Shown: in pieces, positions 13,543 through 25,714 of the stretch
Layout of the letters: each line of letters opens with the position of its first letter
How positions within the stretch are numbered: position 1 is the stretch's first letter
Notes under the pieces: generated by a model
The model's input: the letters and a program-made list of their open reading frames with translations, nothing else
What the model was told of the DNA's origin: nothing
Database searches by the model: none
Made by a program: the position numbers and the translations under genes
Assembly (NCBI GenBank): GCA_003669055.1
Contig: RAYB01000049.1
Coordinates: 1-35,072, forward strand
Direction of reading: 5' to 3'
Source of the DNA: a bacterium 1XD21-70
GTDB taxonomy: Bacteria; Bacillota; Clostridia; Lachnospirales; Lachnospiraceae
DNA length: 35,072 bases

Positions 13543-14550
13543 TCAGCCGATCTGCTGCACACTTTCCTTCACTACAACCGCCCCCGACACCAACCGCATA
13601 TCCGCCGGTGCGTTCCCGTGCTCCGCAAGGGCTGCCACAATCTTGATCGCACACCGCACCATCTCCTTGATATCCACCTCATAGCTGGTAATGCTGATAT
13701 CGCACAGCCCTTCATAAAGATAATTATCAAACCCCACAATCGAGATGTCCTCCGGGATCCGGTACCCCCTGCTTTCCAAAAGGTTTACCAGTTCACTGGC
13801 CGTCAGGTCACAATTGCAGGCAAAAGCCGTCGGCATCCGTTCCGGCAGGCGGATATTCCCGATCTGCCCTTCCATGGTGCGGTCATCCACCACCCAGTCC
13901 GGATTCACCTCCAGCCCATTCTCCAAGAGTGCCTTCCTGTACCCGAAATACCGGTCTGTAATGCTGTTGCTGGCCAGCAGCGTCCCCACATAGGCAATTT
14001 CTTTATGCCCCTGCCCTATCAGGTAATTTACCATCTTATACATGCCGTAATAATTATCCGCCATCACCGAGGGGCAATGCAGCCCCTGCATCATAAAATC
14101 AACCATCACGACAGGGAAATCCGGCTGCCCGTCCAAAAACTCCATATATTCCCTGCTGACCTCCCCGATCACGATCAGCCCCTGGATCTGCTGCTCTATT
14201 GCAAACAGCGGCAGTTCCAGCGCCGCCTCGCGCTCATGCCGCAGCACCTCAAACAAGATCACGCAGCTATGCAGACCGGCAATCAGCGACAATTCCTGAT
14301 ATACCTTCCAATAATACGAGGGATACGGTCCTAGGTACTTCTCCCCGATGATCACCCCCACATTGAGGATCCTTTTGTTGCTGGCCGCGGATGCCCCCCT
14401 GGCCTGGTAGCCCATCTCTGCCGCTGCCTGCTTGATCCGTAGCCGCAGTTCCTCACTGACCCCCTTCTGACCCGCCAGCGCATTGGACACCGTCACCGTG
14501 CTTACCTGTAGCTTCTCTGCAATATCTGATAACCGCACTGACTTTTTCAT
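13543..14550 (-). CDS. LacI-family transcriptional regulator
   Basis: A 335-aa DNA-binding regulator. The LacI-type helix-turn-helix and hinge helix are at the start (VRLSDIAEKLQVSTVTVSNA, then VSEELRLRIKQAAAEMGYQ). A periplasmic-binding-protein-like effector domain follows, with DISIVGFDNYLYEGL typical of sugar-binding members. The frame extends 22 codons further upstream, but that region carries the promoter, and AGGTGGG lies 8 nt before the ATG at 14550. The ligand is unknown. It lies after the TRAP-linked catabolic operon and before the HSP90 cassette. The GH36/GH130 unit is a possible target, but nothing in the sequence proves this. Confidence 0.92.
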   Translation of the reverse strand: MKKSVRLSDIAEKLQVSTVTVSNALAGQKGVSEELRLRIKQAAAEMGYQARGASAASNKRILNVGVIIGEKYLGPYPSYYWKVYQELSLIAGLHSCVILFEVLRHEREAALELPLFAIEQQIQGLIVIGEVSREYMEFLDGQPDFPVVMVDFMMQGLHCPSVMADNYYGMYKMVNYLIGQGHKEIAYVGTLLASNSITDRYFGYRKALLENGLEVNPDWVVDDRTMEGQIGNIRLPERMPTAFACNCDLTASELVNLLESRGYRIPEDISIVGFDNYLYEGLCDISITSYEVDIKEMVRCAIKIVAALAEHGNAPADMRLVSGAVVVKESVQQIG

Positions 14551-14643: not shown

Positions 14644-15420
14644 TTAAGAAGGGACGCCAATCCGGTTCATCCGTTCCCGCACCCCTACACAAGCCTCATA
14701 AAAAATCCCCGTATCCACGGAATAGGACAAATACTGGACTCCGGCATCGCTCCATCTTTTTAAGGTTTCCTGGCTGTCCGTAAACGTCCCCACAAGAATA
14801 TGCTTCTTTTTTGCCCTCACCACAATCTCCTGCATCTGTTCCACCACGGCAGGATGGGTTGTCTGCCCGGGAAGCCCCAAACTCTGGGATAGGTCATACG
14901 GCCCGATAAACAGTATATCCACTCCCGGAACCTCCATAATCTCGTCCAGGTTTTCCAGCGCCTGCTGCCCCTCTAGCTGTATGATCACCAAGGCATGGTT
15001 TGCCATCCGGAAATATTCGTTTTTTTCCAGGGCCGAATATCTGGCTGCCCGTACAAACCGGCAGACCCCGCGCTCCCCCTGCGGATAGAATTTTGCTTCC
15101 CTCACTACCTCCTCCGCCTCCCTGGCATTAGACACCTGCGGCACCTGCACCCCCGCCGCGCCGATATCCAGCACCCGCGAAATATCCTTATATCTGCCCA
15201 CCCGGACAACCGGAAGGACACCGGCCACCTGCGCCGCCCGGATATGGTTCTGCAGGCTTTCCACGCTGACAGGGCCATGTTCCATATCCAATATGACAAA
15301 ATCCATCCCCGCATAGCCTGCCGCTTCCACAAATGCGGGGTCACAGGTCTTCATAAAAGGGCCGATCACATGCCCGTCCCTGATCTTTCGGCAAAACTCT
15401 TCAACCATTGCCATCCCCAT
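14644..15420 (-). CDS. HpcH/HpaI-family class II aldolase
   Basis: A 258-aa metal-dependent pyruvate-type aldolase that splits 2-oxo acids with a hydroxyl at C4, such as 2-keto-3-deoxy sugar acids, into pyruvate plus an aldehyde. The TIM-barrel active site is intact: H48 in DMEHGP, R73 in VVRVGR, E150 in IQLEGQ and D176 in FIGPYDLS, matching HpaI-type catalytic and metal residues. AGGAGG lies 7 nt before the ATG. It is the last gene of the TRAP-linked operon, 68 bp after ridA, across a strong hairpin. It probably performs the final carbon-carbon cleavage. No terminator is visible before the next promoter. Confidence 0.9.
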   Translation of the reverse strand: MGMAMVEEFCRKIRDGHVIGPFMKTCDPAFVEAAGYAGMDFVILDMEHGPVSVESLQNHIRAAQVAGVLPVVRVGRYKDISRVLDIGAAGVQVPQVSNAREAEEVVREAKFYPQGERGVCRFVRAARYSALEKNEYFRMANHALVIIQLEGQQALENLDEIMEVPGVDILFIGPYDLSQSLGLPGQTTHPAVVEQMQEIVVRAKKKHILVGTFTDSQETLKRWSDAGVQYLSYSVDTGIFYEACVGVRERMNRIGVPS

Positions 15421-15441
15421 TCTCTCCCCTCCTCTTTATCC

Positions 15442-15470
15442 GCAGCCATTCGGGCAGCCCGAACGGCTGC
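15442..15470 (-). promoter_or_regulatory. Strong hairpin between ridA and the aldolase gene
   Basis: On the minus strand GCAGCCGTTCGGG pairs with CCCGAATGGCTGC, 13 pairs with one G-T and a 3-nt loop. No T tract follows, so it is not a classical terminator. It more likely protects or sets differential expression of the upstream message. Confidence 0.6.
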
Positions 15471-15488
15471 GTCTGCCGTTTGGCCTGG

Positions 15489-15947
15489 TTACAGTTCAAA
15501 AATGTATTCAATCTCCACAGGGATGTCCCCCGGAAGTTCACTTGCGCCGATCGCCGATCTGGCCCCCACTCCGCAATCCTCCCCGAAAATATCCATCAGG
15601 AACCGGGATGCCCCGTCCGCAACCTTCGGCTGCTGATGGAAGCCCGGAGCGCTTGCCACAAATACAAGGATTTTTACCACGCTTTTAATTTTATTTAAGT
15701 CCCCCAGGTATTCGTCCAGTACACTCAGGGCATTCAAGGTACAGATCACTGCCGCCTCCTGCCCCTTTTCAACCGTGCACTCTTCCCCCAGCCTCCCGGT
15801 AATAACCGGCTGACCGTTCCTGGTTGCACCCTGCCCAGAAAGATACAGCATGTTCCCCACCTGCCTTACCGGTTTATAAATCCCCCCCTTCGGCGGCGCC
15901 GGAGGAAGCTCATATCCCAACTCTTTGATTCTCTCATAAATATTCAT
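15489..15947 (-). CDS. RidA-family enamine/imine deaminase
   Basis: A 152-aa YjgF/RidA protein that hydrolyses reactive 2-aminoacrylate-type enamines and imines released by PLP dehydratases to 2-oxo acids. The key Arg is R130 in GARSAIGASELP, followed by IPVEIEYIFEL. LYLSGQGATRNG (34-45) is also typical. The length of about 150 aa fits the longer RidA subgroup that occurs in catabolic operons. AAGGA lies 9 nt before the ATG. The position directly after a PLP enzyme of the D-serine-dehydratase type supports this role: it finishes the deamination that enzyme begins. Confidence 0.9.
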   Translation of the reverse strand: MNIYERIKELGYELPPAPPKGGIYKPVRQVGNMLYLSGQGATRNGQPVITGRLGEECTVEKGQEAAVICTLNALSVLDEYLGDLNKIKSVVKILVFVASAPGFHQQPKVADGASRFLMDIFGEDCGVGARSAIGASELPGDIPVEIEYIFEL

Positions 15948-15996
15948 AATCTGTTTTCCTTTTCTTTCCTATTCATATTTTTCCAAAAACATCAGT

Positions 15997-17109
15997 TCAG
16001 ACCGTGATTTTCCGGTTACGGGCCTTTACCTCCCATTTTTCCGTGACAACACCGTTTTCCACAACAGGAATCCACGGATACAAGGCACTGGTCGGACAGA
16101 TGTGGGTCGGAATCACATAAACCACGCTCCCGATCTCAGGCAATGGCGCTTCCCGCCCTTCCTTTAGGCAAAACACCCAATGCTCCTCATTCTGAAACTT
16201 TGCCTCATACTCCTCCCCTCCCACAATATAGCCTCTCTCCGAAACCGGGTCCGCAGCAATGCCTTTATACCCCAGGTCCAGGGTGAAGCTGCGTTTTGAG
16301 GGATGGCTGACCACCCTGCTTAAAACCACTGCGGCCGGTATGAAATCCATATCCGGCAGCCTCTTATAATACCCCGCATCCTGCAAAAATGCCGTGCCGG
16401 GAGATAAGAATACATCCGGATATTCGGCATGGCAGGGAAACGAAGGAGTCCCTCCCATCACAAAGACAGGACATTCCAGGTTCTTTTCTTTCAGCCTGTT
16501 TCGGATCTCTTTTAATAACGCTGCCTTTTTTGCCACTGCTTCCTTCCTGGCTTCCAGATCCGAATCATTATGGTTTCCGTCATAGCAATGGAACCCCATC
16601 ATGGCAATGCCCTCCAGGCGGGTGCAGTCCTCATAAAGCTTCTCCGCCGATTCTATCGCCACGCCTGTACGGTCCATCCCCATATTCACATCCAAAAGAA
16701 CCCTTGTGGTAATCCCGCCCTTCAAAGACTCTTCCGACAAAAGGCCTAATTGCCCGTAATCTTCCCCAATCGCCCAGAAACGCTGCTGCGGATATTTCTT
16801 TTCCAGGCTTACAAACCTCCGGATATTAGGCCCCACCAGAGGATAGGCCAGCAAAATATCCTCTACCCCGCAGTCGGCCACCATTTCCGCCTCCGCAATC
16901 GTAGCACATTTAAACCGCCTGATCCCCCTTTCCATCTGCAGCTTTACCATCTCTGCTGTTTTATGGGATTTCACATGCGGCCACAGGCGCTCGGCTGAGC
17001 CGGCAACGCGGATCGCCTTTTCAATATTTCCAATTATGATATCCTTATAATAAACCAGCTGCGGGGTAATGATTTCCGATGTGTCTTTTATATCATACCT
17101 AAAGCCCAT
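15997..17109 (-). CDS. D-threonine aldolase/D-serine dehydratase-like PLP enzyme
   Basis: A 370-aa fold-type III PLP enzyme of the alanine-racemase N-terminal/D-serine-dehydratase-like group. The PLP-lysine motif is WPHVKSHK (43-50). The barrel shows LLDVNMGMDRTGV and GFHCYDGN. The C-terminal domain has the metal pair H-x-C in PTHICPTSALYP, characteristic of D-threonine aldolases and D-serine dehydratases. Members either cleave beta-hydroxy D-amino acids to glycine plus aldehyde or dehydrate them to a 2-oxo acid and ammonia; RidA next door favours dehydration. The frame starts 7 codons earlier (17130), but GAGGGAGG lies just before the inner ATG at 17109. It begins 30 bp after the M20 gene. 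Confidence 0.88.
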   Translation of the reverse strand: MGFRYDIKDTSEIITPQLVYYKDIIIGNIEKAIRVAGSAERLWPHVKSHKTAEMVKLQMERGIRRFKCATIAEAEMVADCGVEDILLAYPLVGPNIRRFVSLEKKYPQQRFWAIGEDYGQLGLLSEESLKGGITTRVLLDVNMGMDRTGVAIESAEKLYEDCTRLEGIAMMGFHCYDGNHNDSDLEARKEAVAKKAALLKEIRNRLKEKNLECPVFVMGGTPSFPCHAEYPDVFLSPGTAFLQDAGYYKRLPDMDFIPAAVVLSRVVSHPSKRSFTLDLGYKGIAADPVSERGYIVGGEEYEAKFQNEEHWVFCLKEGREAPLPEIGSVVYVIPTHICPTSALYPWIPVVENGVVTEKWEVKARNRKITV

Positions 17110-17139
17110 AAGCCCTCCCTCATCAAACAATTTTTCTTC

Positions 17140-18276
17140 TCACATTGATAAGATATAACTCTCATAAAAATCCACTGCATCCTCCAGTTGCTGCCTCTCA
17201 ATATATTCATCCGCAACATGGGCCTGCGCAAGGCTTCCCGGGCCACATAGGATCGCATCAAACCCTTCGGCCAAAAAACATGACATATCACAGCAGGCAG
17301 AAAAATACGTAACCTCCGTTTCCGGCCACCCCAGCCTCCGGTATGCCTGCTGCGCAATTTTCACGCTCCCTGCCTTCGGGTCCGTCATTCCCGGAGCCAC
17401 ATCAATATACTTTTCAATTGTCCAGGAAACATTTTCCGTTTCAAAAATCCGTTTCAGCAGCATTTCCGTTTCTTCCGCCAGTTTTTCTGCGGTATCCCCC
17501 GGTACGGTCCTAAAATCAAGAACCGCCTCCGCATATCCCGGGATCACATTGTCCTTGACCCCTCCCGCCGCTGTTGTCGCTGCAACCGTAGGAGGCGGGA
17601 GGATTGGCTGGATCAGTTTTTGCTTCCTCTGATTCCAGCCTTCCACCTCCACTAAGAACCTTCCCAGGAGGGTAAGCGCGTTGACCCCTTCACAAGGGCG
17701 CCCTGAATGGCACTGCTTTCCATAGATCCCTACCCTCAGGCGCACCACCCCTCTGTGCGCCACATGGATCTCATTTTGTGTCGGCTCTCCGATTACCACA
17801 ATATTCTGCCGCCTTTTTTTGAAATGCTTCACAAAATACTTTGTCCCTGTCCCGTCAATTTCCTCGTCAGCCACGAAAGCCAGAACCAGGTTTTTATTCC
17901 CCAGGGTGTTTTCCCGTTTTACTTTAATCGCAGCAGCCATCATTGCAGCTAAGCCGCCCTTCATATCGCAGGTTCCCCTTCCATAAAAACGCCCTTCTTT
18001 TTCCGTCACCCTAAAAGGTTCTTCCTTCCACCCGCTGCCTGGCGGAACCACATCCAAATGCCCGGTTAAAATCAGGCTGCGGTCCGATGCCCCCATGGAA
18101 GCAACCACGTTTGCGCGGTTCTCTGCCACTTCCTGAACCTCAACGGAAAACCCTTCTTTTTGCAAAATATCTGCGATATATTCCGCCAGGGGCCTCTCGT
18201 TCCCCGGCGCATTAGAGGTATCAAACTTTACCAGCCCCTCCATCAGCTGTACTGCCATCCGGCCATACTCCTTCAT
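17140..18276 (-). CDS. M20-family (ArgE/DapE-like) deacylase
   Basis: A 378-aa dinuclear-metal amidohydrolase or peptidase, cytosolic. Metal and catalytic residues are in order: H73 and D75 in TGHLDVVP, D104 in GRGTCDMKGG, E138/E139 in ADEEIDG, E164 in GEPT, H190 in CHSGRP of the dimer domain, and a late His in SLAQAHVADEY. It belongs to the acetylornithine deacetylase/succinyl-diaminopimelate desuccinylase type, so it likely removes an acyl group from an N-acyl amino acid. It lies 12 bp after dctM with GAGAGG before its ATG. In this operon it is expected to act first on the imported substrate. Confidence 0.9.
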   Translation of the reverse strand: MKEYGRMAVQLMEGLVKFDTSNAPGNERPLAEYIADILQKEGFSVEVQEVAENRANVVASMGASDRSLILTGHLDVVPPGSGWKEEPFRVTEKEGRFYGRGTCDMKGGLAAMMAAAIKVKRENTLGNKNLVLAFVADEEIDGTGTKYFVKHFKKRRQNIVVIGEPTQNEIHVAHRGVVRLRVGIYGKQCHSGRPCEGVNALTLLGRFLVEVEGWNQRKQKLIQPILPPPTVAATTAAGGVKDNVIPGYAEAVLDFRTVPGDTAEKLAEETEMLLKRIFETENVSWTIEKYIDVAPGMTDPKAGSVKIAQQAYRRLGWPETEVTYFSACCDMSCFLAEGFDAILCGPGSLAQAHVADEYIERQQLEDAVDFYESYILSM

Positions 18277-18288
18277 AGTCCCTCTCCC

Positions 18289-19557
18289 CTACATCATATT
18301 CCCCAGGAACATGGTCAGCGGCGGGCAATATGCCACCAGCAAGATCACAATTCCCCCTACGATGAAAAAGGGAATCAGGTCCTTCACGCACTCCTCAATA
18401 GAGATCCCCGCTATATTACAGGATATAAACAGCGTAGTCCCAACCGGAGGGGTAAACAGCCCCATTGCCAGGGAACAAAGCACCACAATAGACATGTGGA
18501 TCGGATCCATTCCCATCCCTATGGCAATCGGCATAAAAATCGGCAGGAAAATATACAAATTAGGAACATTGTCCATAACCATCCCTGCACAGAAGAGGAT
18601 TAAGATCATCACCAGAAGCATCAAGGCATACGGCAGGTTTAACCCCAGCAGGAAATCCGCAATCATCGTCGGGATATTATTGCTTACCAGGATCCACTGC
18701 ATGATCGTCGCTGTACAGACCACCATCATAACCACGGTTGTCCCAATTGCGGAGTCCTTCAAAGCACGGAGGATCTTCTTCATATTAAGGGAACGGTATA
18801 CAAACAGCCCTAAAAGCAGGGAATACACCACACAGATAGAAGCAGACTCCGTAGGAGTTGCTATCCCCAGGATAATGCTCCCCAGCATAAACACCGGGAA
18901 CAGCATCGCCCAGGCTGCATCCACAGACGCTGCAATAACCTCACTTTTTGAGGCACGCTCCTCCCGGGGATAGTTATTCTTCAGCGCCATCCACACCGTC
19001 ACCGCCAAATAAGCAAACCCGATCAGAATACCCGGAATCGCCCCCGCAAGAAACATTTTTGCCACGGAAAGCCCTGTAATATAAGAAATCACAATCATCG
19101 TACTGCTCGGGGGAATGATAATGCCCACCACCGAACTGGTAGCATTGATTGCCGCCGAAAAAGATTTCGGATAGCCCTGGTCATTCATTTCCGGAATCAG
19201 GATTGCCCCTACGGAAGAGGCATCTGCCACCGAAGATCCGGAAATCCCTGCCATAATCATGCTTGTCACCACAGATACGCAGCCCAGCCCTCCCGGAAGC
19301 TGGCGAACCAGGACACTGGCAAAATTGATCAGCTTTTTGGCAATCCCCGACTCTACCATCAAATTCCCCGCCAGGATAAAGAACGGAACAGCCAAAAAGG
19401 AAAATGACTGCGTATTGGAAAAGAACTTCTGCGCCGCAACTGCCAGGGAAATATCATTCGCCTGCATAAACAAAAGAGATGCACTCCCCATGGCAAACGC
19501 AATGGGCACCCCTATTACCATCAAGATGGCAAACGACAAAAACATGACAAAAATCAT
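18289..19557 (-). CDS. dctM: TRAP transporter large permease
   Basis: A 422-aa membrane protein, the transport channel subunit of a TRAP (tripartite ATP-independent periplasmic) carboxylate importer. It is strongly hydrophobic with around a dozen membrane helices. DctM features include VPFFILAGNLMVESGIAKKL, GISGSSVADASSVGAI and a second-half repeat with GLFTPPVGTTLF. The start overlaps the dctQ stop by 4 nt (ATGA), so translation is coupled. Import is driven by an ion gradient and depends on the DctP binding protein encoded upstream. The symbol names the family, not a proven C4-dicarboxylate substrate. Confidence 0.95.
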   Translation of the reverse strand: MIFVMFLSFAILMVIGVPIAFAMGSASLLFMQANDISLAVAAQKFFSNTQSFSFLAVPFFILAGNLMVESGIAKKLINFASVLVRQLPGGLGCVSVVTSMIMAGISGSSVADASSVGAILIPEMNDQGYPKSFSAAINATSSVVGIIIPPSSTMIVISYITGLSVAKMFLAGAIPGILIGFAYLAVTVWMALKNNYPREERASKSEVIAASVDAAWAMLFPVFMLGSIILGIATPTESASICVVYSLLLGLFVYRSLNMKKILRALKDSAIGTTVVMMVVCTATIMQWILVSNNIPTMIADFLLGLNLPYALMLLVMILILFCAGMVMDNVPNLYIFLPIFMPIAIGMGMDPIHMSIVVLCSLAMGLFTPPVGTTLFISCNIAGISIEECVKDLIPFFIVGGIVILLVAYCPPLTMFLGNMM

Positions 19558-20063
19558 TCTCCTTCACCCCCCATCTTTACAATGTCAAACATAATGTACT
19601 TAAATAAATTATATCCCACAACAATGGTAATCCCCACAAACCCAACGAACATGGAACCGTATACCAGCGCTTTGCTGATGCCGGTAAGGACCATAATCTC
19701 CTTGCTCAGGGAACTTGACAGCTTAAAGGAGGCAACCGCCATAAAGACTGAAAAATAAAGCATCACCATGTGCACTGCGATCTCGGCAATATGGCGGAAA
19801 ATCCCCTTAAATTTCTCTTTAATAAAAACCAAGGCTGTATTCCCATTATCCTTCGCAATACTGATTGCGCTCAATGATACAATCCACGGAAAAAGGATAT
19901 TGGTCATCTCCGTGGTGATAACAATCGGAGACTTAAATATATAACGGCAAAGCACCTCTGCGAATACAAAACCCGTCAGGAGAGCCATCATGATTCCTGC
20001 AATAATCCCCAAAGCATTCGTAAAGACATAAATCCCTTTATCAATTTTTTTGAAAACATCCAT
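19554..20063 (-). CDS. dctQ: TRAP transporter small permease
   Basis: A 169-aa membrane protein with four hydrophobic helices, the small subunit of the TRAP importer. FAEVLCRYIFKSPIVITTEM and the central LFPWIVSLSAI segment fit DctQ. The frame extends five codons upstream (20078), but AGGAGG lies 6 nt before the ATG at 20063 and inside the longer version, so the shorter start was chosen. It is placed between dctP and dctM, overlapping dctM by 4 nt. Confidence 0.92.
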   Translation of the reverse strand: MDVFKKIDKGIYVFTNALGIIAGIMMALLTGFVFAEVLCRYIFKSPIVITTEMTNILFPWIVSLSAISIAKDNGNTALVFIKEKFKGIFRHIAEIAVHMVMLYFSVFMAVASFKLSSSLSKEIMVLTGISKALVYGSMFVGFVGITIVVGYNLFKYIMFDIVKMGGEGE

Positions 20064-20099
20064 CCCTGACCTCCTCATCCCTGGAATCTCCCGGCTCCT

Positions 20100-21191
20100 T
20101 TACCGCCCGATTGCCTTTAAGACCTTTTCGTTTGCCTTCCCCGCAAACATGTCATATACCGGCTTAACCGCCTCTGCAAATTCGCCCGTATCCGGAGTGG
20201 TGATCTCCTTAAAGCCGCCCTCCTCCTTAATCATGTCAAGATACCTGGTATCCGCATCCTTTGCATATTCCCTGGAAACCACCTGCGCCTCGGCCGCTGC
20301 CTCTAAGATCAGCTTCTGTGTGTTTTCATCCAGAGAGGCAAACTTGCTGTCACTCATTACAAAGTTAATCCCATAATAGAAAATATTGCAGAGCGCCAAA
20401 TAATCCTGCACCTCATAGAATTTCTGCTGATAAATCGCGTCAATCGGGTTAAACTGCCCATCTACTACCCCCTGGCTCATTCCCAGATACAGTTCCGAAA
20501 ATGCCAATGTTGACACGGAGCAGCCCAGGCTTTCAAAGGTTTTGATGGATGCCTCTTCATTCGGGGATCTCATCTTCAGGCCTGCCATATCAGCCACACC
20601 GTTGATGGCCTTCTTGTTATTGGTAATCTGAGCCATGCCCAGGTCTCCCCAGCCCAGGATTTTATATCCGTAACTTTGTGCCAGTTCTTTTAATGCCTCT
20701 CCCAACTCACCGTCCTGAAGCTTATGTGCCTCCTCAAAGTCCTTGACCAAAAAAGGAAGGGACACTGCGGAAAAAGAGGGATCTACGTTCGACATATTCG
20801 AGCAGCCCGGAAGGGTGAAATCCAGGGTTCCGATTTTAACCATCTCCGTCATCTCCTGCTCCGAACCCAAGGTTCCTGCCGGGAACAATTCGACCGTGAT
20901 CTTCCCTCCGCTCTGTGTCTCCAGATACTCTTTAAAAGCCTTGGCCATCTCCCCTCTTACGGAATCCTCCACGGTATTGTAGCCTAATTGGAATTTCTGT
21001 TCCTTGTATTCCGTGCCGTTTGCCTCTTTTTCTGCTGCTTCTGCCACGGTTTCTTCCCCTGCCTCCTGCTGCGCCGCTGCCTCTGTCGTCTCCGGGGTTT
21101 TGGAATTACCGCACCCCGCCAGGGCTGCAGAAACCATCAATACCGCTGCCGTCATTGCCGCCATTCCTCTTGCCTTCATCACTTTTCTCAT
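20100..21191 (-). CDS. dctP: TRAP substrate-binding lipoprotein
   Basis: A 363-aa extracytoplasmic solute receptor. The lipoprotein signal ends in LAGC with lipidated C27, as expected for a Gram-positive anchor. An Ala/Glu/Thr-rich linker (about 30-60) leads to the DctP fold. MAGLKMRSPNEE carries the conserved Arg that clamps a substrate carboxylate, and QFNPIDAIYQQKFYE lies in the second lobe. AAGGAGAAG precedes the ATG. It is the first gene of the operon behind a near-consensus promoter. The substrate should be a carboxylic acid; the downstream enzymes suggest an N-acylated amino acid or amino-sugar acid. Confidence 0.95.
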   Translation of the reverse strand: MRKVMKARGMAAMTAAVLMVSAALAGCGNSKTPETTEAAAQQEAGEETVAEAAEKEANGTEYKEQKFQLGYNTVEDSVRGEMAKAFKEYLETQSGGKITVELFPAGTLGSEQEMTEMVKIGTLDFTLPGCSNMSNVDPSFSAVSLPFLVKDFEEAHKLQDGELGEALKELAQSYGYKILGWGDLGMAQITNNKKAINGVADMAGLKMRSPNEEASIKTFESLGCSVSTLAFSELYLGMSQGVVDGQFNPIDAIYQQKFYEVQDYLALCNIFYYGINFVMSDSKFASLDENTQKLILEAAAEAQVVSREYAKDADTRYLDMIKEEGGFKEITTPDTGEFAEAVKPVYDMFAGKANEKVLKAIGR

Positions 21192-21291
21192 AATACTTCT
21201 TCTCCTTAATCATAATTTTTATCTCATTTGCATCACTGCAACTTCGATCTGAGCCTATTCTATATAAAATTTTTATATTTTTCTTATCGCA

Positions 21292-21320
21292 ATTATACAT
21301 GAAATAATAATTTTTTTCAA
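21292..21320 (-). promoter_or_regulatory. Promoter of the TRAP catabolic operon
   Basis: On the minus strand TTGAAA (21315-21320) and TATAAT (21292-21297) are 17 nt apart. The leader is about 94 nt. Confidence 0.8.
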
Positions 21321-21344
21321 GTATTAATTCGATTATTTATACTT
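21319..21344 (-). promoter_or_regulatory. Possible activator site abutting the dctP -35 box
   Basis: Imperfect inverted repeat AAGTAT (21319-21324) and ATACTT (21339-21344), with TAAT and ATTA inside. It touches the -35 box on its upstream side, a usual place for an activator such as the divergent DauR-like protein. AT-rich background makes this tentative. Confidence 0.35.
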
Positions 21345-21632
21345 TTTTCTAATTCAATCCTACGGTTTACTTTTTCGTCCTGTTTAAAAGGTGCAAAACT
21401 TGATTTTTAATAGCAAAAATTCATCCGAATTGCATTTATTCATCTAAATCTATTAACCCCGCCCTCCTTTTATTATACTTTTTTTCTGAAAATGTCTGTT
21501 CCCCTTCGTTATATGATAAAATATTTTTTCAATTTGAACTTATTTTCCCATTTGAACTTGTTTTTTTATTTTATCAATGTTAAAATATTATTTATATTAT
21601 ATTTAAACTTTATTCTAAAGGGGAACAGACCA
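21345..21632. promoter_or_regulatory. AT-rich divergent control region
   Basis: No convincing gene is seen. Direct repeats TTTGAACTT lie at 21533-21541 and 21551-21559 (18-bp period). A perfect 13-bp inverted repeat flanks the most AT-rich part: GTCTGTTCCCCTT at 21494-21506 and AAGGGGAACAGAC at 21618-21630. The right arm includes the ribosome site of the regulator gene. The open frame through this region gives Phe/Asn/Leu-rich sequence typical of translated AT-rich non-coding DNA. The promoter of the regulator could not be fixed. Confidence 0.5.
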
Positions 21633-22289
21633 TTGAGCGGCTTATATGAAAACAAAGACACCTTTTTACGCCTTATAAAAATGCTTGCCATCCAATACGG
21701 TTCCAAATCAGAAATCATCCTCCATGATCTGACCAGTACCTATGAGAGCACCATCATAGGCATTGAAAACAATCATCTTACCGGCAGGAAGGTGGGCGAT
21801 TGCGGAAGTAATTTAGGCCTGGAAATACTGCGCCAGGACAGCAGGCAGAAGAACCATGACTCCTTCGGATATATTACCCACTTAAAGGATGGGCGTATTT
21901 TCCGCTCCTCCACCCTGTACATCTATAATGATGAAGGCTCCGTGGAGGGCTGCCTCTGCATCAACACGGATATCACAGAGATGAAAGAACTCGCCTCCCT
22001 TTTTTCCGAACTGTACAGATCCCAATCCTCCCAGGATAACGAGAAGGAAGTTTTTGCAAAAAATGTAGGGGAACTGGTTGATTATTATATCGAAATGCAC
22101 CAGGAACTTTTAGGAAAGAACCCTTCCGAAATGAGCAAGCAGGAAAAGCTTGACGCCATCCGTTACTTTGATGAAAAAGGTGTTTTTCTTATCTCAAAAT
22201 CCGGAAACAAGATTTGCAGATACCTCGGGATCTCCAAAGGAACCCTGTATTCCTATCTGGAAAATGTGCGGGACCCGGAATCCAAATAG
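21633..22289 (+). CDS. DauR/YheO-type transcriptional regulator
   Basis: A protein of about 218 aa with an N-terminal YheO-like PAS domain (QYGSKSEIILHDLT, GYITHLKDGRIFRSST, GCLCINTDIT) and a C-terminal DauR-type helix-turn-helix (DAIRYFDEKGVFLISKSG, then ICRYLGISKGTLYSYLENV). DauR of Pseudomonas controls D-arginine use, so a regulator of D-amino-acid-type catabolism fits the divergent operon. I chose the TTG at 21633, with AAAGGGG 9 nt upstream. The frame stays open to an ATG at 21492 but reads through AT-rich non-coding sequence. The ribosome site is in one arm of a 13-bp inverted repeat. Confidence 0.82.
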   Translation: MSGLYENKDTFLRLIKMLAIQYGSKSEIILHDLTSTYESTIIGIENNHLTGRKVGDCGSNLGLEILRQDSRQKNHDSFGYITHLKDGRIFRSSTLYIYNDEGSVEGCLCINTDITEMKELASLFSELYRSQSSQDNEKEVFAKNVGELVDYYIEMHQELLGKNPSEMSKQEKLDAIRYFDEKGVFLISKSGNKICRYLGISKGTLYSYLENVRDPESK

Positions 22290-24770: not shown

Positions 24771-25634
24771 TCACGCCTTGCCGACAGATCCGAACAGTTC
24801 CATCTTCTCTTTCACGGTCTCCTTGATCGCCGCTGCACCGGGAGCCAGAAGCTTACGCGGGTCAAACCCTTTGCCCTGCTGATCCTTGCCTGCCTCGATA
24901 TACTCACGGGTAGCCGCCGCAAAGGACAGCTGGCACTCTGTATTCACATTGATCTTTGCCACGCCCAGGTCTATCGCTTTCTTGATCATGTCTGCCGGGA
25001 TGCCGGTACCGCCATGCAGCACCAACGGCATCTCGCCGGTCTTCTCCTGGATTGCTGCCAGGGTCTCAAAACTCAGCCCTTTCCAGTTCTCCGGGTATTT
25101 GCCATGGATATTGCCGATGCCTGCTGCCAAAAAATCAATCCCCAGGTCTGCAATCATCTTGCACTCATCGGGATCCGCACACTCACCGGCACCCACAACG
25201 CCGTCTTCCTCGCCGCCGATGGAGCCAACTTCTGCCTCAATAGACAGACCCATGGCATGGGCAATGCTCACCAGTTCTTTGGTCTTGGCAACATTCTCCT
25301 CAATGGGGTAATGGGAGCCGTCAAACATAATGGAGGAAAACCCTGCCTTGATGCACTTGTAGCAGCCCTCGTAAGTACCATGGTCCAAATGCAGCGCAAC
25401 CGGAACCGTAATGTTCATCTCCTCGATCATCGCCTTCACCATCTCTGTCACGGTCTTAAAACCGGTCATGTACTTACCTGCGCCCTCGGACACACCCAGG
25501 ATCACCGGGGAATTCAATTCCTGGGCAGTAGCCAGGATAGACTTTGTCCACTCCAGATTGTTGATGTTGAACTGGCCTACTGCATAATGCCCCGCTTTTG
25601 CTTTTTTCAGCATTTCTGTTGCAGATACTAACAT
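24771..25634 (-). CDS. fba: Fructose-1,6-bisphosphate aldolase, class II
   Basis: A 287-aa zinc aldolase interconverting fructose 1,6-bisphosphate with dihydroxyacetone phosphate and glyceraldehyde 3-phosphate. The zinc and catalytic motifs are LHLDHGTYEG (D84, H85), SIEAEVGSIGG, AAGIGNIHGKYP and LVLHGGTGIP, followed by phosphate-binding KINVNTE. The frame starts 16 codons earlier (25682), but GGAGG lies 8 nt before the ATG at 25634, which gives the usual MLVSATEMLKKAKAGHYAVG start. It is probably a single-gene unit. Together with fbp in this window it covers both directions around fructose bisphosphate. Confidence 0.95.
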   Translation of the reverse strand: MLVSATEMLKKAKAGHYAVGQFNINNLEWTKSILATAQELNSPVILGVSEGAGKYMTGFKTVTEMVKAMIEEMNITVPVALHLDHGTYEGCYKCIKAGFSSIMFDGSHYPIEENVAKTKELVSIAHAMGLSIEAEVGSIGGEEDGVVGAGECADPDECKMIADLGIDFLAAGIGNIHGKYPENWKGLSFETLAAIQEKTGEMPLVLHGGTGIPADMIKKAIDLGVAKINVNTECQLSFAAATREYIEAGKDQQGKGFDPRKLLAPGAAAIKETVKEKMELFGSVGKA

Positions 25635-25671
25635 TTCATAATCCTCCATTTCGTCATTTATACTCACCTCG

Positions 25672-25714
25672 GCAGCCCCCATGGGAGACAGGGGCTGCAG
25701 CTTGTACTATTATA
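25672..25714 (-). promoter_or_regulatory. fba promoter -10 and leader hairpin
   Basis: On the minus strand TATAAT (25709-25714) is a clear -10 box, but no good -35 lies 17 nt upstream. The new transcript would begin with the hairpin GCAGCCCC/GGGGCTGC (25672-25698), about 40 nt before the ATG. A stable 5' hairpin of this kind can prolong mRNA life. Confidence 0.5.

What the first reader, a model, noticed from the sequence alone, without database searches (positions are those of the whole stretch)
14644..22289. Candidate catabolic system for an N-acylated beta-hydroxy D-amino acid or amino-sugar acid
One operon joins a TRAP acid importer, an M20 deacylase, a fold-III PLP enzyme of the D-threonine-aldolase/D-serine-dehydratase type, RidA and an HpcH/HpaI aldolase, with a DauR-like regulator divergent. 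The families fit a stepwise route. The carboxylate enters, the acyl group is removed, the 2-amino-3-hydroxy acid is dehydrated, RidA hydrolyses the enamine, and the aldolase splits a 2-keto-3-deoxy acid to pyruvate plus aldehyde. An N-acetyl-2-amino-2-deoxy-aldonate (N-acetylglucosaminate type) satisfies every step, because it has a D-amino-acid centre and a beta hydroxyl and gives a 2-keto-3-deoxy sugar acid. I know no named system with this gene set. The substrate is inferred; catalytic residues and operon structure are seen directly.
Basis: partly seen in the sequence, partly recalled or inferred. Interest (0 to 1): 0.78.

Follow-up and report, generated by a model that had tools for sequence, protein, structure and literature searches.

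The report
Clostridial operon for amino-sugar acids
A bacterium of the Clostridia, probably a gut one, carries a set of neighbouring genes that probably imports an acylated amino-sugar acid, strips off the acyl group and the nitrogen, and splits what is left into pyruvate and a small aldehyde, by the same logic as a known marine chitin pathway but built mostly from different enzyme families.

Summary
The operon is real and the enzyme families were read correctly: TRAP importer, M20 deacylase, fold-III PLP enzyme, Rid protein and HpcH/HpaI aldolase, with a divergent PAS_6/HTH_22 regulator. A near-copy sits in a second species of the genus.

The amino-sugar-acid version of the proposed route gains support. 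The PLP enzyme has the His-x-Cys metal pair known from dehydratases, not the His-x-Asp of D-threonine aldolase. In relatives it stands beside D-aminoacylases, Rid1 proteins and 2-keto-3-deoxy-sugar-acid enzymes. In one congener the order is M20, D-aminoacylase, Rid1, PLP, 2-keto-3-deoxygalactonokinase, KDPG aldolase. Two of five fetched relatives of the aldolase sit with galactonate dehydratase. So M20, PLP and Rid1 appear to take a dehydratase's place.

One claim fails. A named system with this logic exists: the marine ong pathway for N-acetylglucosaminate (2022). The window is not an ong cluster: PLP enzyme (23% to OngC), deacylase, Rid protein, transporter, regulator and last step all differ.

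Best reading: a non-phosphorylating counterpart of ong for an N-acyl-2-amino-2-deoxy-aldonate, gluco or galacto. The substrate is inferred; nothing was assayed.

The parts
20100..21191 (-). DctP, TRAP solute-binding subunit (first gene of the operon; lipoprotein-like N-terminus by eye)
   Evidence: ORF; PF03480 280 bits; nearest solved chains are TRAP SBPs incl. sialic-acid SiaP
19554..20078 (-). DctQ, TRAP small permease
   Evidence: PF04290; overlaps DctM by 4 bp
18289..19557 (-). DctM, TRAP large permease
   Evidence: PF06808 385 bits; TIGR00786 above cut-off
17140..18276 (-). M20 deacylase (ArgE/DapE-type); proposed N-deacylation step
   Evidence: PF01546/PF07687; TIGR01910 above cut-off; motifs GHLDVV, DMKGG, DEE, GEPT, AH aligned (residue roles recalled)
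15997..17130 (-). Fold-III PLP enzyme; proposed D-amino-sugar-acid dehydratase/deaminase. TTG start as listed; an in-frame ATG gives MGFRYD
   Evidence: PF14031+PF01168; PLP lysine Lys54 and metal pair His343-x-Cys345 in TTG-start numbering (Lys59 of AxDTA); AF2 model pLDDT 86, fold
15489..15947 (-). Rid1-type imine deaminase (PF14588)
   Evidence: catalytic Arg conserved in 15 of 15 aligned rows, window included; nearest solved chains include PA0814 and ACIAD3089, both Rid1 in PMC5619798; only PF14588 match in the genome
14644..15420 (-). HpcH/HpaI class II pyruvate aldolase; proposed cleavage of the 2-keto-3-deoxy acid
   Evidence: PF03328; nearest solved: 2-dehydro-3-deoxyglucarate and 2-keto-3-deoxy sugar aldolases; relatives with galactonate dehydratase in 2 of 5 fetched loci
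21492..22289 (+). PAS_6/HTH_22 (YheO/DauR-like) divergent regulator; the true start probably lies downstream of 21492 (L016 homologue 245 aa)
   Evidence: homologues near the PLP gene in L016, L012, L014, L017, L042 (tblastn)
21292..21344 (-). Promoter-like site TTGAAA-17-TATAAT (21320-21292) with an inverted repeat (arms 21319-21328 and 21335-21344) at the -35: candidate operator
   Evidence: conserved with L016; function not tested
13543..14550 (-). LacI-family regulator downstream, probably its own transcript; not at that place in L016; membership in the system doubtful
   Evidence: PF00356/PF13377; promoter-like site 14616-14588

Best explanation
A catabolic operon for an N-acyl-2-amino-2-deoxy-aldonate (N-acetyl-glucosaminate or N-acetyl-galactosaminate type). 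The TRAP transporter brings in the carboxylate. The M20 enzyme removes the acyl group. The PLP/metal enzyme eliminates the 3-hydroxyl of the resulting D-configured 2-amino acid. Rid1 speeds hydrolysis of the released enamine/imine to a 2-keto-3-deoxy-aldonate. The class II HpcH/HpaI aldolase splits this, without phosphorylation, into pyruvate and glyceraldehyde. The PAS_6/HTH_22 protein is the likely local regulator. Shown by sequence: families, operon, catalytic residues, recurrence of the module, company of sugar-acid enzymes in some relatives. Inferred: substrate, acyl group, order of steps, ligand of DctP, regulation.
For: (1) Metal pair His-x-Cys in 18 of 18 clade rows and in OngC of L025, a homologue of the OngC shown to deaminate GlcN1A; BhcC and the Agrobacterium homologue L034 have His-x-Asp. 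Chicken D-serine dehydratase uses His/Cys and D-threonine aldolase His/Asp (PMC4401734 passages). Entry titles naming H351A and C353A mutants of D-threo-3-hydroxyaspartate dehydratase point the same way. (2) Company of the PLP clade (18 loci, clade): Rid1 in 14 of 18, a deacylase or dipeptidase in 15 of 18. (3) L042, same genus: M20 - D-aminoacylase-like - Rid1 (77%) - PLP (52%) - DGOK - KDPG aldolase - DauR-like. (4) L011: divergent galactonate dehydratase equivalog (647 bits, cut-off 311), then SSF symporter - D-aminoacylase-like - Rid1 - PLP - GntR - ILVD/EDD. (5) Window aldolase relatives: L059 (with TRAP) and L060 (with GntP) carry galactonate dehydratase (648 and 669 bits, cut-off 311); L058 (with TRAP) carries an MR_MLE-type protein whose best hit is the same model but below cut-off (198). 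The window genome has only a 28-35% homologue of that dehydratase. (6) The ong pathway shows the same chemistry: deacetylation, PLP deamination of GlcN1A to 2-keto-3-deoxygluconate, with a RidA-family gene needed for growth on the substrate (PMC9537276).
Against: No assay. By whole sequence and fold the PLP enzyme is nearer D-threonine aldolases (Foldseek TM 0.86) than D-serine dehydratase (0.82). His-x-Cys is not special to this clade: 6 further fetched homologues outside it have it (L026, L028, L030, L031, L032, L035), and so does 3LLX, a predicted aldolase or racemase. Some clade members have other company: L019/L021 an enoyl-CoA hydratase, L023/L024 an M19 dipeptidase, with GntP in L023. 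Two of the 5 fetched aldolase relatives (L056, L057) sit with an SDR and a branched-chain-type ABC transporter and no dehydratase. The ILVD_EDD of L018 passes the NCBIfam IlvD cut-off (665 vs 618), so it may be ordinary biosynthesis. L042 has both M20 and a D-aminoacylase-like gene, so M20 may not be the N-deacetylase. Rid1 is not exclusive to this module: it occurs in 12 of 24 genomes of the genus, the PLP in 4 of 24. Firm sugar-acid enzymes are in only 4 of 18 clade loci (window, L016, L042, L011). No source of N-acyl-aldonates was established.
Confidence: 0.56

Rival explanations
1. N-acyl D-serine/D-threonine (or similar small beta-hydroxy D-amino acid) catabolism: M20 releases D-Ser/D-Thr, the PLP enzyme dehydrates it, Rid1 hydrolyses 2-aminoacrylate/2-aminocrotonate; the aldolase acts in a side branch.
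For: OngC also deaminates D-Ser and D-Thr; Rid1-3 proteins deaminate 2-aminoacrylate in vitro (PMC5619798 passages); Bacteroidota relatives pair the PLP gene with an M19 dipeptidase, and in L023 with GntP, a family near the D-serine carrier DsdX (DsdX model among the hits of another GntP).
Against: Pyruvate and 2-oxobutyrate need no aldolase. L042 carries DGOK and KDPG aldolase; L011 carries galactonate dehydratase; glycan-acting genes lie near several clade members.
Confidence: 0.18
2. 3-hydroxy-D-aspartate-type substrate: M20 deacylates an N-acyl-3-hydroxy-D-aspartate, the PLP enzyme gives oxaloacetate plus ammonia (dehydratase) or glycine plus glyoxylate (aldolase), and the HpcH/HpaI enzyme acts on the keto acid.
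For: Best NCBIfam hit of the PLP enzyme is BhcC (100 bits); D-threo-3-hydroxyaspartate dehydratase shares the fold and, by its mutants' names, the His-x-Cys pair; TRAP systems often carry dicarboxylates (general knowledge).
Against: Score far below the BhcC cut-off (100 vs 690); BhcC has His-x-Asp, the window His-x-Cys; no BhcA, BhcB or BhcD-type family among the operon genes; some relatives carry six-carbon sugar-acid enzymes.
Confidence: 0.08
3. The aldolase is only a neighbour: the TRAP-M20-PLP-Rid1 set degrades one substrate and the HpcH/HpaI enzyme, which occurs without it in other congeners, serves another pathway.
For: Close aldolase relatives occur in genomes with no match to this PLP enzyme at E<=1e-60 (G728, G744, G742) and in different gene company. 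The gap RidA-aldolase is the largest in the operon (68 bp).
Against: Same strand and same order in L016, where a 412-bp gap follows; the aldolase is single-copy at E<=1e-35 in the window genome, with no close galactonate dehydratase elsewhere in it; L042 has functionally equivalent enzymes right after its PLP gene.
Confidence: 0.13

Closest known systems
ong cluster, oxidative chitin pathway of Pseudoalteromonas (OngB/OngC/OngD/KdgK; PMC9537276, PMC12017989)
   Same: Order of chemistry: import of an N-acetyl-amino-sugar acid, N-deacetylation, fold-III PLP deamination to a 2-keto-3-deoxy acid, a Rid-family protein, then an Entner-Doudoroff-type end.
   Different: Window PLP 23% to OngC of L025, OngC on a very long branch outside the window clade; M20 instead of D-aminoacylase; Rid1 (PF14588) with no BLAST match to OngD; TRAP instead of SSS; PAS_6/HTH_22 instead of MurR/RpiR; direct aldolase instead of kinase plus KDPG aldolase; a genus of Clostridia (it includes 'Clostridiaceae bacterium 1XD21-29') rather than Gammaproteobacteria.
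De Ley-Doudoroff (galactonate) pathway, DgoD/DgoK/DgoA (pathway name recalled)
   Same: Some relatives of the PLP gene and of the aldolase sit with galactonate dehydratase, DGOK or KDPG aldolase.
   Different: The window uses a PLP deaminase in place of a dehydratase and a non-phosphorylating class II aldolase.
D-glucosaminate pathway dga (PTS import, DgaE ammonia-lyase, DgaF aldolase)
   Same: Amino-sugar acid to 2-keto-3-deoxy acid by a PLP ammonia-lyase. A DgaE-family lyase sits with D-aminoacylase-like, Rid1 and DauR-like genes in congener locus L080 (below NCBIfam cut-off).
   Different: dga works on the 6-phosphate (PMC9529869, start of abstract in a listing only) with an unrelated lyase family and PTS import (recalled). 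An older D-glucosaminate dehydratase (EC 4.3.1.9) is recalled, seen in no call.
D-threonine aldolase / D-serine dehydratase / BhcC (fold-III PLP, PF14031)
   Same: Fold, PLP lysine, metal-assisted chemistry on beta-hydroxy D-amino acids.
   Different: Window clade has its own motif G[LFI]H[CAG]YDG (L035 outside it has a near form, GWHVYDG) and dehydratase-type metal ligands.

Membership tests
ong pathway (oxidative chitin utilisation) | OngC-clade PLP deaminase | tested here: not met
   23% identity over 254 aa (E 5e-10) to OngC of L025; OngC outside the 18-row window clade in the tree, on a branch of 4.99 so its exact place is unsure
ong pathway (oxidative chitin utilisation) | OngB D-aminoacylase-type GlcNAc1A deacetylase | tested here: not met
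   M20 in the window; OngB-like genes in 7 of 18 clade loci, 27-31% to OngB of L025 in the 6 scored
ong pathway (oxidative chitin utilisation) | OngD RidA-family protein | tested here: not met
   A Rid protein is present but apparently another subfamily; no BLAST match of window Rid to OngD at E<=10
ong pathway (oxidative chitin utilisation) | KdgK kinase, SSS transporter, MurR/RpiR regulator | tested here: not met
   None among the operon genes; HpcH/HpaI, TRAP and PAS_6/HTH_22 instead
ong pathway (oxidative chitin utilisation) | GlcNAc1A is the substrate | not testable with these tools
   needs enzyme assays
D-threonine aldolase (D-TA) | His-x-Asp metal ligands and base His193 (AxDTA) | tested here: not met
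   Window has His-x-Cys; AxDTA His193 aligns to an aspartate (Asp189, TTG-start numbering) in the alignment; roles from PMC4401734
Fold-III D-serine-dehydratase-type enzymes | PF14031 and PF01168, PLP lysine, His-x-Cys metal ligands | tested here: met
Rid1 subfamily imine deaminase | PF14588 match, conserved catalytic Arg, nearest known members Rid1 | tested here: met
   no Rid tree was built, so the subfamily call rests on nearest neighbours
beta-hydroxyaspartate cycle (BHAC) | BhcA, BhcB, BhcD beside BhcC | tested here: not met
   operon families; BhcC score 100 vs cut-off 690
HpcH/HpaI class II pyruvate aldolases | PF03328 with conserved His, Arg and metal-binding Glu/Asp | tested here: met
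   DMEHGP, the Arg of VRV, EG and GPYDLS identical in 7 of 7 aligned sequences, window included; residue roles recalled

The most novel reading that the evidence does not exclude
Clostridia of (probably) the gut, spirochaetes and perhaps Bacteroidota have an undescribed, widely re-assembled pathway for N-acetylhexosaminates, probably including N-acetyl-galactosaminate, made of a fold-III PLP deaminase clade plus Rid1. In the window it ends in a non-phosphorylating class II aldolase and begins with an M20 enzyme acting as a sugar-acid deacylase. It would give the Rid1 subfamily a first physiological substrate and show that oxidised amino sugars are a nutrient for anaerobes.
Probability: 0.4. 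Interest if true: 0.66.

Novelty: new variant of a known kind. Interest (0 to 1): 0.5.

Why it matters
Oxidised amino sugars are a hallmark product of chitin-cleaving LPMOs, and the papers I saw show their catabolism by experiment in marine Pseudoalteromonas. If this operon does what its parts suggest, Clostridia also eat them, by an independently assembled route. That raises the question of where such acids arise in their habitat and would make them measurable nutrients. It also offers a concrete physiological reaction for Rid1, for which PMC4433059 (2015, passage) says nothing is known about in vivo substrates, and a sugar-acid function for an M20 deacylase.

Tried and rejected
Tried: DctP structure to infer the ligand. 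The model from 2 sequences had mean pLDDT 40, so no fold search was made with it; nearest solved SBPs include SiaP but many others, so no ligand is inferred. First paper query gave 0 papers; a wide query returned unrelated microbiome papers among the 15 listed of 847. Phylum- and class-wide searches for the PLP clade at E<=1e-60 gave 0 of 397 genomes besides the own one and 1 of 390 besides the own one, a partial frame, so the clade is sparse. The 401-aa gene of L042 matched no Pfam, NCBIfam or PDB entry at the thresholds used. Habitat and family of the window's organism: no call names them; 1XD21-29 is in no paper of the library, sister strain numbers are in 3 papers, listed by title as mouse, rat or gut-microbiota studies (listing only), and the taxonomy has no such name, so 'gut' is inference.

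Considered and rejected: that the window is an ong cluster (membership tests); that the PLP enzyme is a D-threonine aldolase (metal ligands); that LacI belongs to the operon (own promoter-like site, absent in L016). I first took the transporter of L018/L020 for TRAP from gene sizes; Pfam shows the binding protein of L018 is TctC. I first counted L017's amidohydrolase as a D-aminoacylase; NCBIfam calls it a PRK09237 deacetylase. My script took the second lysine of the PHVKSHK motif for the PLP lysine; the alignment with AxDTA Lys59 makes it the first, Lys54.

Rows dropped before the 18-locus counts: L015 (stop inside the PLP frame), L044 (truncated frame), L045 (same contig region as L016), L035 (joins the clade only one node further out, 99/97, on a long branch), and loci with only 26-29% PLP homologues (L026, L028, L030, L031, L032, L033, L034). 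Near-duplicates kept: L018/L020 and window/L016. Of 8 aldolase places outside the window and G730 I fetched 5; the 3 at 35-36% identity were not looked at. Of 15 Rid places, 5 were in hand and the other 10 were fetched.
Full report
What is there. On the minus strand, 21191 to 14644, lie dctP, dctQ, dctM, an M20 deacylase, a fold-III PLP enzyme, a Rid protein and an HpcH/HpaI aldolase, with gaps of 21, -4, 12, 9, 49 and 68 bp. All are above Pfam's gathering scores. A PAS_6/HTH_22 gene lies divergently at 21492-22289. The same order is found in L016, a named isolate (Clostridiaceae bacterium 1XD21-29; genome G730 of the window's genus), at 89-96% protein identity. The stretch upstream of dctP keeps a TTGAAA-17-TATAAT site with an inverted repeat at its -35. 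A LacI gene after the aldolase has its own 12/12 promoter-like site, overlapping its listed TTG start, and is absent at that place in L016; I leave it out of the system. No call names the window's family or habitat; 'gut' is my inference.

The PLP enzyme. Its Pfam pair (PF14031, PF01168) covers D-threonine aldolases, D-serine dehydratases and BhcC. The metal ligands help to separate them: PMC4401734 (passages read) states that chicken D-serine dehydratase uses a histidine and a cysteine, and D-threonine aldolase a histidine and an aspartate. The window has His343-x-Cys345, as do 18 of 18 clade rows and OngC of L025; BhcC and L034 have His-x-Asp. The pair is not special to the clade: six more distant homologues have it too. 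The base His193 of the aldolase aligns with an aspartate (alignment). Against this, overall sequence and fold are nearer the aldolases (TM 0.86) than the dehydratase (0.82) (model pLDDT 86). I read it as a dehydratase/deaminase.

The clade and its company. In the tree the window falls in a group of 18 rows (support 96/90) with genomes of the same genus and family, spirochaetes, a Latescibacterota and an unclassified metagenome genome, and two Bacteroidota plasmids. Among these 18 loci a Rid1-type gene is in the fetched stretch in 14. It is not found in L012, L013, L019 or L021; L013 and L021 are cut by a contig end. A deacylase or dipeptidase is present in 15 of 18: M20 in 6 (window, L016, L009, L041, L042, L043), an Amidohydro_3 D-aminoacylase-like gene in 7 (L010, L011, L012, L014, L018, L020, L042), a PRK09237-type deacetylase in 1 (L017), an M19 dipeptidase in 2 (L023, L024); L042 has two. 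Homologues of the PAS_6/HTH_22 regulator are in 6 of 18 (window, L016, L012, L014, L017, L042). Sources. The PLP gene and PF14588 each occur once in the 4.31-Mb window genome, 49 bp apart, so adjacency by chance is very unlikely. Rid1 is not exclusive to the module: 12 of 24 genomes of the genus have it, 4 of 24 the PLP gene, and all 4 with the PLP gene have Rid1. The clade is rare: 8 of 348 genomes in the family sample, 2 of 391 in the class sample, 1 of 398 in the phylum sample, own genome included each time.

Why a sugar acid. L042, in the same genus, reads M20 (45%), D-aminoacylase-like, Rid1 (77%), PLP (52%), 2-keto-3-deoxygalactonokinase (PF05035, 132 bits), KDPG aldolase (PF01081, 131 bits), DauR-like. 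L011 reads galactonate dehydratase (divergent; NCBIfam equivalog, 647 bits against a cut-off of 311), sodium:solute symporter, D-aminoacylase-like, Rid1, PLP, GntR, ILVD/EDD. Glycan-acting genes lie near other members: MupG and a PTS in L010, heparinase II/III-like in L009, GH2 in L012, GHL6 in L014, GH28 in L018. The ILVD_EDD of L018 passes the IlvD cut-off, so I give it no weight. Firm sugar-acid enzymes are thus in 4 of 18 loci (window and L016 through the aldolase, L042, L011), three lineages; the other 14 show none that I give weight to.

Why this aldolase. Eight places in the genus and family samples match it outside the window and G730; I fetched the five at 56-75% identity. L059 (with TRAP) and L060 (with GntP) carry galactonate dehydratase (648 and 669 bits, cut-off 311). 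L058 (with TRAP) carries an MR_MLE-type protein whose best hit is that model but below cut-off (198). L056 and L057 carry an SDR and a branched-chain-type ABC transporter (the latter named by eye) and no dehydratase. So a sugar-acid dehydratase is firm in 2 of 5 and likely in a third. The window genome has only a distant homologue of that dehydratase (28-35%) and no match to the L042 kinase (no positive control). The simplest reading is that M20, PLP and Rid1 take the dehydratase's place and deliver the same kind of 2-keto-3-deoxy acid.

Comparison with the known. The ong cluster of Pseudoalteromonas (PMC9537276; abstract and five result sections read) imports N-acetyl-glucosaminate, deacetylates it with OngB and deaminates GlcN1A to 2-keto-3-deoxygluconate with OngC. 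OngD (RidA family) gave no ammonia or product by itself in vitro, but its deletion abolished growth on the substrate; KdgK phosphorylates the product. PMC12017989 (abstract and passages) describes OngB. I fetched an example by annotation and gene order (L025, Pseudoalteromonas shioyasakiensis). The window shares the logic but not the parts: 23% PLP identity, no Rid match, no D-aminoacylase, kinase, SSS transporter or MurR/RpiR. It works like ong and is not a member of it. Text searches with glucosaminate/galactosaminate terms, GalNAc1A, GlcN1A and Rid context listed no paper titled or abstracted on such a pathway in gut or anaerobic bacteria; several lists were cut (20 of 120, 15 of 847, 10 of 16, 6 of 15) and the library holds only open-licence papers, so this is a limited negative.

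Rid1. The nearest solved chains to the window Rid protein include PA0814 and ACIAD3089, which PMC5619798 lists as Rid1 and shows to deaminate several imines (passages). PMC4433059 states that nothing is known about in vivo substrates of Rid1-3 (passage). The catalytic arginine is kept in 15 of 15 aligned rows, window included.

Open points. Which sugar (gluco or galacto; both have the D-amino-acid configuration at C2, general knowledge), which acyl group, whether M20 or a further enzyme is the deacylase, and where the acid comes from. Galactonate-type neighbours lean towards galacto; nothing decides it. All substrate statements are inference. On re-checking I lowered the best explanation from 0.58 to 0.56 and the novel case from 0.42 to 0.40, because a dehydratase is firm in 2, not 3, of 5 aldolase relatives and His-x-Cys is also found outside the clade; two rivals rose by 0.01 each.

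Noticed in passing
L080:1-7484 (same genus): SBP - 370-aa gene (Gfo/Idh-like by eye, no NCBIfam match) - DgaE-family PLP ammonia lyase (below cut-off) - D-aminoacylase-like - Rid1 - DauR-like: the same module with an unrelated lyase in place of the fold-III PLP enzyme.
   Followed up: partly
L042:4107-6104: Upstream of M20/D-aminoacylase: a 401-aa protein with no Pfam, NCBIfam or PDB match and a metallo-beta-lactamase-fold protein; possibly an oxidising enzyme and a lactonase that would make the aldonate inside the cell.
   Followed up: partly
L010:8668-14655: PTS IIBC - MupG (6-phospho-N-acetylmuramidase family) - D-aminoacylase-like - PLP - Rid1: suggests a disaccharide ending in an amino-aldonate taken up by a PTS.
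   Followed up: no
L023:6611-11228 and L024:8504-11166: Bacteroidota plasmids carry Rid1 - PLP - M19 membrane dipeptidase, in Parabacteroides with a gluconate:H+ symporter; the substrate may be a dipeptide or amide of a D-amino acid.
   Followed up: no
L028:117-3329: A 23.9-kb plasmid record of Subdoligranulum variabile holds a divergent PLP (26%), D-aminoacylase-like gene and Rid1 next to what looks by eye like a serine recombinase; the cassette may be mobile.
   Followed up: no
L026 and L031 (haloarchaeal plasmids): D-aminoacylase next to a 27% PLP homologue, with carbohydrate ABC transporter genes nearby: the pairing reaches archaea.
   Followed up: no
L019:9004-11113 and L021:89-2253: Two metagenome-genome members of the PLP clade stand beside an enoyl-CoA hydratase family gene, with no Rid or deacylase seen (L021 is cut by the contig end).
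   Followed up: no
window 24771-25682 and L057:242-2080: Class II fructose-bisphosphate aldolase gene (named by eye) lies near the operon in the window and directly beside the HpcH/HpaI gene in congener L057 (96.5% identical), with a different operon attached; perhaps a recombination spot.
   Followed up: no
window 14616-14588: 12/12 sigma-70-like promoter match whose -35 TTG is called as the LacI start codon by ORF listing.
   Followed up: partly
L015:8977-15271: PLP-clade gene with an internal stop beside an aspartate-dehydrogenase-like, an aldehyde dehydrogenase and a D-glutamate-cyclase-like gene: possibly a decayed or different pathway.
   Followed up: no
L044:1509-9969: Sulfatase, galactonate dehydratase (646 bits, cut-off 311) and a KDPG-aldolase fragment lie about 4 kb upstream of a truncated PLP-clade frame, with an APH-type and a radical-SAM gene between; left out of the counts.
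   Followed up: partly
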